From contig NZ_UHIY01000001.1 in assembly GCF_900460525.1 (NCBI RefSeq), positions 2,542,001 to 2,606,000 of the forward strand: DNA of 64,000 nt, written 5' to 3'. A program made the position numbers and the translations under genes. Source of the stretch: Yersinia kristensenii. Lineage in GTDB: Bacteria > Pseudomonadota > Gammaproteobacteria > Enterobacterales > Enterobacteriaceae. This document shows, one piece after another, positions 57,554 to 59,617 of the stretch. The notes under the pieces were generated by a model. The model was not told the DNA's origin and made no database searches. It was given only the letters and a program-made list of their open reading frames with translations. Position 1 is the first letter of the stretch. Each line of letters opens with the position of its first letter.

Positions 57554-59617
57554 ATGAATAAGAATCTGTACCGTATGGTCGGTGTCAGCGCCTCATTAGG
57601 CTCACAAAAATCGTCCTCGCAGCAGCATCAGGAACAGACCAGTGTGACTGGCTCGACCCTGACCGCGGGCAACAACCTGACGGTGACAGCCACCGGTGAC
57701 GGGAACAGCGGCGATATTCTGGTGCAAGGCAGCCAGCTTAAAGCTGGCGGCGATACCACCTTAGACGCCGCCCGTGACTTGCTATTACTCGGTGCCGCCA
57801 ACACGCAAAAAACTGACGGCAGTAACAGCAGCAGCGGCGGCAGCGTAGGGGTCAGTCTCGGCCTGAATGGTGCCAGCAGTGGCCTGAGCATCTTTGCCAA
57901 CGCCAATAAGGGCCAGGGCAATGAGCACGGCAACGGCACCAGCTGGACGGAAACCACCCTCGACAGCGGCGGTACCCTGTCGCTAAACAGCGGCCGCGAT
58001 ACTTCACTCATCGGCGCTCAGGCCAGCGGCGAAAGCGTCAAGGTGGATGTCGGCCGCGACCTGCTGCTGCAAAGCCAGCAAGACAGCGATAACTATGATG
58101 CGAAGCAGACCAGCACCAGCGGTGGCGTCAGTGTCGCGGCGGGTGGTGGTGGCTCGGCCAACCTCAGCATGAGTCAGGACAAACTGCACAGCAACTATGA
58201 CTCGGTGCAGGAGCAGACCGGCATCTTTGCGGGTAAAGGCGGTTTTGATATCACCGTCGGCGAGCATACTCAGCTGGATGGCGCAGTGATTGCCAGCACC
58301 GCAGACCAGAGTAAAAACAGTCTGGACACCGGCACGCTCGGCTTCAGTGACATTGAAAATAAAGCCGATTTTAAAGCGGAACATCAGGGCGGCAGCCTGA
58401 GCACTGGCGGCCCGGTGGGGTCTGACCTGTTGAGCAATCTGGGCGGCGTGGTGTTGTCGGGGCTGGGCAATGACGGCCATGCCGAGGGCACCACTCAGGC
58501 GGCGATCTCGGAGGGCAGCATCACCATCCGCGATACCGATAAACAGCAGCAGAATGTCGATGACCTGAGCCGCGACACCGACCATGCCAACGGCAGCATC
58601 GGCCCAATATTTGATAAAGAGAAAGAGCAGAACCGGCTGAAAGAAGCGCAACTTATCGGCGAGATAGGCGGTCAGGCAATGGATATTGCGCGGACGCAGG
58701 GAGATATCCTCGGGCTTGAGGAAGCTTTGAAACGCCATCCTGAGTTGCAAGGCAATGTAGAAGCCTTGCGCGAAACACCCGAATATAAAGCCGAAATGCA
58801 GAAATACGGCACCGGCAGCGCACTGCAACAAGGGCTTCAGGCCGCCACCGCCGCTATCCAAGGTCTGGCGGGCGGGAATATGGCACAAGCACTGGCGGGG
58901 GCTTCTGCACCGTATCTGGCTGAGGTGATTAAGAAAAGCACCGGAGATAATCAGGCGGCCAATGCCATGGCCCACGCCGTATTGGGCGCTGTCACCGCCT
59001 ACGCCAGTGGCAACAGTGCGTTAGCGGGCGCGGCAGGTGCGGCTACCGCCGAGTTGATGGCCCCGGTTATCATCGCCGCCATGGGTTGGGATAAAAATAA
59101 TCTCAGCGAAGACCAGAAACAGACCGTCAGTGCGCTGGCCACACTGGCCGCAGGATTAGCCGGTGGATTGACCGGCGACAGCACCGCTGATACGGTTGCC
59201 GGTGCACAGGCTGGGAAAAATGCGGTTGAGAATAATGCGCTGGGTAATAAAAAGGGCTGCGGCCTGGATCCACTCGCATGTAGAGACCCATTGATAGAGG
59301 GCGGAGGTATTCGTGGTGGTGGCATATCAGCCAAAACACCTACGGGTTCAAAAGGAAATGTGCTGAAAGTTCAAGATGGATCTAATAGACCAACTACTAT
59401 TAACGATCGGCAATTTTCAGGACATGCTTTAGATCGCATGCAAAAACAAGGAATTACACCAAGTGTTGTAGAGAATGCTATCAAACCTGAAAATGCAGTT
59501 AAGGGAAAAGTACCAGGAACTACTGCATACCATGATAAAATGAATAATATTACGATAATAGTTAATGAAAATACTGGTCGGATAGTGACTGTTGATTTTG
59601 GGCTAATAAAACAATGA
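57554..59617 (+). CDS. cdiA: CdiA-family toxin protein with a large N-terminal deletion (headless)
   Basis: A 687-residue open frame. Residues 1-9 (MNKNLYRMV) are the usual first residues of a TpsA protein, but from residue 10 the text is FhaA/CdiA C-terminal repeat sequence (SVTGSTLTAGNNLTVTA, GGDTTLDAARDLLLLGA). The Sec signal, the TPS domain and the receptor-binding region, usually more than 1500 residues, are missing. It continues into the pretoxin region (from about 375) and VENNALGNK (VENN at 558-561), then a toxin tail of about 120 residues. Export by CdiB is not expected. Start codons at 57542 (TTG) and 57548 are alternatives. It is 36 bases after cdiB and overlaps the immunity gene by ATGA. 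Confidence 0.85.
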   Translation: MNKNLYRMVGVSASLGSQKSSSQQHQEQTSVTGSTLTAGNNLTVTATGDGNSGDILVQGSQLKAGGDTTLDAARDLLLLGAANTQKTDGSNSSSGGSVGVSLGLNGASSGLSIFANANKGQGNEHGNGTSWTETTLDSGGTLSLNSGRDTSLIGAQASGESVKVDVGRDLLLQSQQDSDNYDAKQTSTSGGVSVAAGGGGSANLSMSQDKLHSNYDSVQEQTGIFAGKGGFDITVGEHTQLDGAVIASTADQSKNSLDTGTLGFSDIENKADFKAEHQGGSLSTGGPVGSDLLSNLGGVVLSGLGNDGHAEGTTQAAISEGSITIRDTDKQQQNVDDLSRDTDHANGSIGPIFDKEKEQNRLKEAQLIGEIGGQAMDIARTQGDILGLEEALKRHPELQGNVEALRETPEYKAEMQKYGTGSALQQGLQAATAAIQGLAGGNMAQALAGASAPYLAEVIKKSTGDNQAANAMAHAVLGAVTAYASGNSALAGAAGAATAELMAPVIIAAMGWDKNNLSEDQKQTVSALATLAAGLAGGLTGDSTADTVAGAQAGKNAVENNALGNKKGCGLDPLACRDPLIEGGGIRGGGISAKTPTGSKGNVLKVQDGSNRPTTINDRQFSGHALDRMQKQGITPSVVENAIKPENAVKGKVPGTTAYHDKMNNITIIVNENTGRIVTVDFGLIKQ
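57714..58686 (+). repeat. cdiA repeat region, copy 1 of a 973-bp direct duplication
   Basis: This stretch of the cdiA frame (from ATATTCTGGTGCAAGG to GGATAT) recurs at 60227-61199 at a constant offset of 2513 bases, so no net insertion or deletion separates the copies. See the second copy. Confidence 0.9.
59252..59617 (+). other. CdiA-CT toxin tail, putative RNase-like domain
   Basis: The tail after VENNALGNK (residues 567-687 of the CdiA frame). It begins with a Gly-rich linker and ends with a compact domain of about 75 residues (NDRQFSGHALDRMQKQGITP; GTTAYHDKMNNITIIVNENTG). The pattern H-A-x-x-R-M followed by an alpha helix and a beta hairpin resembles DUF4258 and RelE/BECR-type nucleases; His624 and the following Arg are candidate catalytic residues. 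Its AT-rich codon use differs from the GC-rich repeats before it, as expected for an exchangeable CT module. The activity is not proven. Confidence 0.6.

What the first reader, a model, noticed from the sequence alone, without database searches (positions are those of the whole stretch)
57554..59617. Headless CdiA: TpsA start codons joined in frame to late repeats and an intact toxin
Seen in the sequence: residues 1-9 (MNKNLYRMV) are the canonical start of a two-partner exoprotein, and the next residues are repeat sequence normally found well over a thousand residues later. The frame, the VENN motif, the toxin tail and the immunity gene are all intact. Known of the family: export needs a Sec signal and a TPS domain read by CdiB. 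Inference: an in-frame internal deletion left a cytoplasmic toxin-antitoxin-like pair under the cdi promoter, or a silent donor cassette kept for recombination. Keeping both the frame and the immunity gene suggests selection.
Basis: partly seen in the sequence, partly recalled or inferred. Interest (0 to 1): 0.85.

Follow-up and report, generated by a model that had tools for sequence, protein, structure and literature searches.

The report
Export-less CdiA toxin gene remnant
A bacterial weapon gene in a Yersinia genome has lost, in one clean in-frame deletion, the front part needed to send its toxin out of the cell, while its start codons, toxin tail and protective immunity gene are left intact; it is most likely a young relic, with a small chance that it now works as an internal toxin-antidote pair.

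Summary
ORF 57554-59617 (687 aa) starts with the first seven codons of a CdiA exoprotein and passes at 57575-57576 into late FHA-2 repeat sequence, then PT-VENN, a toxin tail and cdiI (59614-59913). cdiB (55820-57517) is intact. Relatives show a deletion: in 17 Yersinia loci the two joined points lie 5.2-7.5 kb apart, each time a multiple of three; 24 of 25 matches to this gene start in 25 genus genomes continue normally, the window's does not. A positional relative between apt and dnaX carries the full-length gene. ESPR signal and TPS domain are gone; the best match to the lost head elsewhere in the genome is 44%. The toxin is a predicted BECR-fold RNase; the same toxin and immunity (97%, 98%) end a full-length CdiA in Y. 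hibernica. Most likely: a young in-frame deletion derivative that cannot export but keeps its immunity gene and start codon. A toxin-antitoxin role is possible but untested. Collapse of repeats in assembly is unlikely, since the joined parts share only two bases.

The parts
54641..55204 (+). apt, left flank of the cdi island
   Evidence: ORF; found in 25 of 25 genus genomes; gene name recalled
55820..57517 (+). cdiB, intact two-partner exporter (565 aa; POTRA and ShlB domains), now without a full partner at this locus
   Evidence: 93% aa identity to the cdiB of G019
57554..57574 (+). first seven codons (MNKNLYR) of the original cdiA, with the leader in front of them
57575..57576 (+). deletion junction, two shared bases AT
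57554..59617 (+). headless cdiA, 687 aa, one open frame
57596..58114 (+). FHA-2 repeat region (PF13332, best stretch, residues 15-187)
59096..59245 (+). pre-toxin domain with VENN (PF04829, residues 515-564); VENN at 59225-59236
59225..59614 (+). toxin tail (130 aa), predicted BECR-fold RNase; weak DUF4258 match
59614..59913 (+). cdiI immunity gene (99 aa), overlapping the toxin stop codon
   Evidence: role inferred from position and from G011
59914..60200 (+). broken second cdiI-like copy
60226..61203 (+). remnant of a further cdiA repeat copy (orphan remnant), 93% identical to residues 54-379 of the headless protein, ending in TGA without toxin
61671..63635 (+). dnaX, right flank of the cdi island
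   Evidence: N-terminal part found in 25 of 25 genus genomes; gene name recalled

Best explanation
This is a former cdiBAI locus in which one in-frame deletion of roughly 5-7.5 kb, between two points sharing only AT, removed the extended signal peptide, the TPS domain and most of the filament. What remains is a 687-residue protein that lacks what Sec and CdiB recognise, still behind the cdiA leader and start codon, ending in an intact predicted BECR-type RNase tail and followed by its immunity gene. Shown: the anatomy, the sharp junction, the full-length gene in relatives, the absence of the export domains. Inferred: the deletion is young (cdiB and frame undecayed); if translated, the toxin stays in the cytoplasm bound by CdiI; what is most likely kept by selection is CdiI, which still protects against neighbours with this toxin. 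[quoted passage not shown]
For: Sharp two-sided homology; 17 loci with both points 5211-7527 bp apart, each a multiple of three; 24 of 25 start matches in the genus continue normally; positional relative G018 with full-length cdiA between apt and dnaX; ESPR and TPS found in the heads of G018 and G019 and not here, no signal-like hydrophobic stretch in the first 90 residues (best mean 0.86 against 2.03-2.16 in three relatives); best match to the lost head elsewhere in the genome 44%; same toxin and immunity at the end of a 2437-aa CdiA in G011/Y. hibernica; intact cdiB.
Against: No second strain of the same species could be examined, so age and spread of the deletion are unknown; one partial protein labelled Y. 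enterocolitica has the identical tail (residues 557-687) but begins at residue 178, so its head is unknown. Which repeat copy gave the right end (main gene or an orphan) is undecided. Expression is not shown.
Confidence: 0.75

Rival explanations
1. Domesticated toxin-antitoxin-like pair: the short protein is made from the cdi leader, held by CdiI in the cytoplasm, and released under stress or on loss of the locus.
For: Start codon and leader kept; toxin and immunity intact with dN/dS 0.105 each against a full-length relative; predicted fold shared with RelE, YoeB and HigB toxins; DUF4258, matched by 11 of 11 aligned tails but by the window's below its cut-off, is listed among BECR toxin-antitoxin families (PMC11980606, passages).
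Against: The constraint measured includes the time before the deletion; frame retention has a one-in-three chance; only one genome is known to have it; none of the 13 hits from 126 candidates to residues 1-50 carries the junction, all begin to match at residue 8; expression unknown.
Confidence: 0.12
2. Silent cassette: the module is stored for recombination that would swap toxins into a working cdiA.
For: Proposed for orphan modules (PMC3150448 and PMC4927057, passages); toxin and immunity have moved between lineages: dS 0.13 and 0.08 against 1.37 in the pre-toxin stretch and 0.83 in cdiB.
Against: The one large paralogue found in the genome (745 kb) shares 70-75% DNA identity with the repeats, and its head is 44% identical in protein, so a resident acceptor is poor. 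A cassette needs no start codons.
Confidence: 0.08
3. Assembly error or collapse of repeats.
For: cdi loci carry repeats, and two relatives' contigs end inside cdiA (L038, L039).
Against: The two joined parts share two bases, so overlap-based collapse cannot easily make this joint; the chromosome is one 4.71 Mb contig; the frame is clean. Reads were not seen.
Confidence: 0.04
4. A variant of the best explanation, not exclusive of it: a longer deletion fused the start codons to a downstream orphan module, removing the whole main cdiA with its toxin and immunity gene.
For: Relatives such as G019 carry a second repeat copy about 3 kb further on; the first 513 bases are slightly closer to that copy (22 against 27 differences). 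A 3,557-bp deletion that fused an orphan to cdiA is published for Yersinia (PMC3150448, passages).
Against: The base after the junction (ATGGTC) matches G019's main copy, not its second copy. Undecided.
Confidence: 0.25

Closest known systems
CdiA of Yersinia cdiBAI loci (L143/G018; L050/G011, Y. hibernica)
   Same: same start (MNKNLYR, or MNNNLYR in G018), FHA-2 repeat, PT-VENN, cdiB in front; G011 has the same toxin and immunity
   Different: ESPR, TPS domain and about 1,740-2,500 codons are missing here
Orphan cdiA-CT/cdiI modules (Poole et al. 2011, PMC3150448, passages seen)
   Same: cdiA 3' fragment with VENN, toxin and cdiI, no secretion head
   Different: those generally lack translation start signals and lie downstream of a full-length cdiA; this one has the cdiA start and lies directly behind cdiB
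CdiA-CT of E. coli NC101 and colicin E5 (BECR RNases)
   Different: 14-21% identity; target and cofactor unknown here
Type II toxin-antitoxin pairs of the RelE/ParE superfamily
   Different: 687-residue toxin with repeat and pre-toxin parts; immunity gene second; autoregulation not tested

Membership tests
CdiA (two-partner CDI exoprotein) | signal peptide (ESPR) and TPS domain for export through CdiB | tested here: not met
   PF13018 and PF05860 found in the heads of G018 and G019, not in the window protein; no signal-like stretch in first 90 residues
CdiA (two-partner CDI exoprotein) | FHA-2 repeats, PT-VENN, variable toxin tail, cdiI behind, cdiB in front | tested here: met
CdiA (two-partner CDI exoprotein) | contact-dependent inhibition of neighbours | not testable with these tools
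   needs a competition test
Orphan cdiA-CT/cdiI module | cdiA 3' fragment with VENN and cognate cdiI, without secretion head | tested here: met
Orphan cdiA-CT/cdiI module | lies downstream of a full-length cdiA | tested here: not met
   cdiB is directly in front; no full-length cdiA at the locus
Orphan cdiA-CT/cdiI module | generally no translation start signal | tested here: not met
   ATG at 57554 with the leader conserved in relatives; use of the start not shown
BECR-fold RNase toxin | helices followed by an antiparallel sheet as in colicin E5, RelE, CdiA NC101 | tested here: inconclusive
Type II toxin-antitoxin system | toxin and antitoxin both made in the cell, antitoxin neutralises toxin in the cytoplasm | not testable with these tools
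   needs expression and toxicity tests

The most novel reading that the evidence does not exclude
A contact-dependent weapon turned inward: by one in-frame deletion a secreted CdiA became a translated cytoplasmic BECR toxin with its immunity protein as antidote, driven by the old cdi promoter, i.e. a direct step from an interbacterial toxin to a toxin-antitoxin-like addiction pair.
Probability: 0.12. Interest if true: 0.65.

Novelty: new variant of a known kind. Interest (0 to 1): 0.36.

Why it matters
Orphan CDI modules are mostly thought not to make their toxin because they generally lack start signals. Here the toxin fragment keeps the original start codon and leader but not the export head, so the locus could show directly whether such a fragment is made, whether CdiI must stay with it, and whether an export toxin can turn into an internal toxin-antitoxin pair. 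If the product is not made, it is simply a young broken CDI locus.

Tried and rejected
Repeat collapse in assembly: rejected as likely cause because head and repeat share only AT. Frame and immunity retention as proof of selection: rejected (one-in-three chance; intact but partnerless cdiB; dN/dS covers time before the deletion). Head moved elsewhere in the genome: not found, best match 44%. Another genome with the same junction: none of the 13 protein hits to residues 1-50 (all match from residue 8 on); none of the best 120 of 4018 hits to the whole protein begins with a TpsA start (the other 3898 were not seen, and only the 7991 candidates sharing most words had been scored); none of the other 24 start matches of the genus; none seen in the 64 cdiB loci (57 have a canonical head in a long frame, some cut by a contig or locus end; L102 has ESPR and TPS but stops after 431 aa; L105 is a 1244-aa protein with a TPS domain; L072 and L106 are broken and unclear; L066, L118 and L123 end too soon to judge). 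PDB sequence hits of the toxin profile to pentatricopeptide proteins cover 14-18 profile positions in repeats and were set aside. phmmer of immunity and toxin against PDB gave nothing useful. NCBIfam gave no match for the headless protein. A first model of the tail without alignment was poor (mean pLDDT 55) and gave no PDB match at E <= 0.001; its first four rows were colicin D and a CDI toxin, with unrelated beta-propeller proteins also in the list. Promoter scan: 24 sites against 7.6 expected in shuffles, not used as evidence. Right end from main gene or orphan: undecided. Papers: searches showed no CdiA described as lacking its head but keeping its start; I saw their listings and passages of six papers (PMC3150448, PMC4927057, PMC4725963, PMC11980606, PMC6211672, PMC6336857), so this is no proof of absence in print.

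Full report
What is there. The window holds, between apt (54641-55204) and dnaX (61671 on; both names recalled), an intact cdiB (55820-57517), an ORF of 687 aa from the ATG at 57554 to 59617, a 99-aa immunity gene overlapping its stop (59614-59913), a broken second immunity-like copy, and a remnant of a further repeat copy. Pfam finds FHA-2 repeats and PT-VENN in the ORF and neither ESPR nor TPS domain; the first 1000 residues of the CdiA of G018 and G019 have both.

Junction. A search with cdiB plus gene start matched 21 of 25 genus genomes, own included, one of them (G017) only by 76 bases. Blastn of the two sides against 24 fetched loci shows left homology ending at 57579/57580 in 21 loci and right homology beginning at 57575 in 18. 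Base by base, the head gives CGTAT, the repeat gives ATGGTCGG, and AT at 57575-57576 is shared. So seven codons, not nine, are from the head. In the 17 loci where I placed both points they lie 5211-7527 bp apart, each time a multiple of three.

Relatives. 25 matches to the start pattern occur in 20 of 25 genus genomes; 24 continue with the normal VFN codons, the window's does not. Among the 24 genomes with apt and dnaX on one contig (G023 has them on two), a cdi island lies between them in two, G000 (6.5 kb) and G018 (15.4 kb); eight have only 86 bp there. In G018 the gene is full-length; by the coordinates about 6.75 kb of it is missing here (extrapolated over 16 bases).

How it most likely works. 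Without ESPR and TPS the protein should not be exported (established knowledge of two-partner secretion; inference for this protein). If translated it stays in the cytoplasm, where CdiI would bind it. CdiI keeps its value against neighbours with the same toxin, as argued for orphan modules (PMC3150448 and PMC4927057, passages). The intact cdiB suggests that the deletion is young. A toxin-antitoxin-like role is the bold reading: a BECR toxin with start codon and antidote in one operon. Nothing here shows that the protein is made.

Against my reading. I could not look at other strains of the species; the tail's constraint says nothing about the time after the deletion; the origin of the right end is undecided (the base after the junction favours G019's main copy, the first 513 bases slightly favour its second copy).

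What is known. [quoted passage not shown] that paper also reports orphan CdiI being made while the orphan toxin was not detected. Lack of start codon and RBS in orphans is also stated for Pseudomonas (PMC4725963, passages). Small orphan cdiA genes without export signal are annotated as genes in Haemophilus parasuis (PMC6211672, passages), so short export-less CdiA frames as such are not new. A fragment that keeps the cdiA start but not its head was not seen in the searches named under Tried and rejected.

Noticed in passing
59914-60200: A second cdiI-like copy, broken by stops and frame changes, about 50-54% identical to CdiI over 46-52 residues.
   Followed up: partly
60226-61203: Remnant of another cdiA repeat copy, 93% identical to residues 54-379 of the headless protein, stopping at TGA without toxin.
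   Followed up: partly
L054 (G000:C1:734000-753900): A second CDI-like locus in the same genome with a 3405-aa frame, VENN and a different toxin tail.
   Followed up: partly
54641-62570 and the apt-dnaX gap of 24 genus genomes: apt-dnaX is a variable insertion site: gap 86 bp in eight genomes, 0.3-2.3 kb in eleven, 5.5-5.7 kb in three (two of these looked at, L144 and L146, hold other genes), cdi in two.
   Followed up: partly
59225-59913 against L050:10070-10755: Toxin and immunity genes are far closer to Y. hibernica than their surroundings, an exchange at or near VENN.
   Followed up: yes
P0151, P0152: The same toxin tail type ends two proteins with Rhs domains, so the domain moves between CDI and Rhs carriers.
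   Followed up: no
P0019, P0021: Proteins labelled Y. similis and Y. pseudotuberculosis are annotated to start at exactly the repeat Met that is codon 8 here; their genomic context was not seen.
   Followed up: no
L102 (Providencia stuartii), 11562-12854: The opposite break: a cdiA start with ESPR and TPS that stops after 431 aa, a long frame following in another phase.
   Followed up: partly
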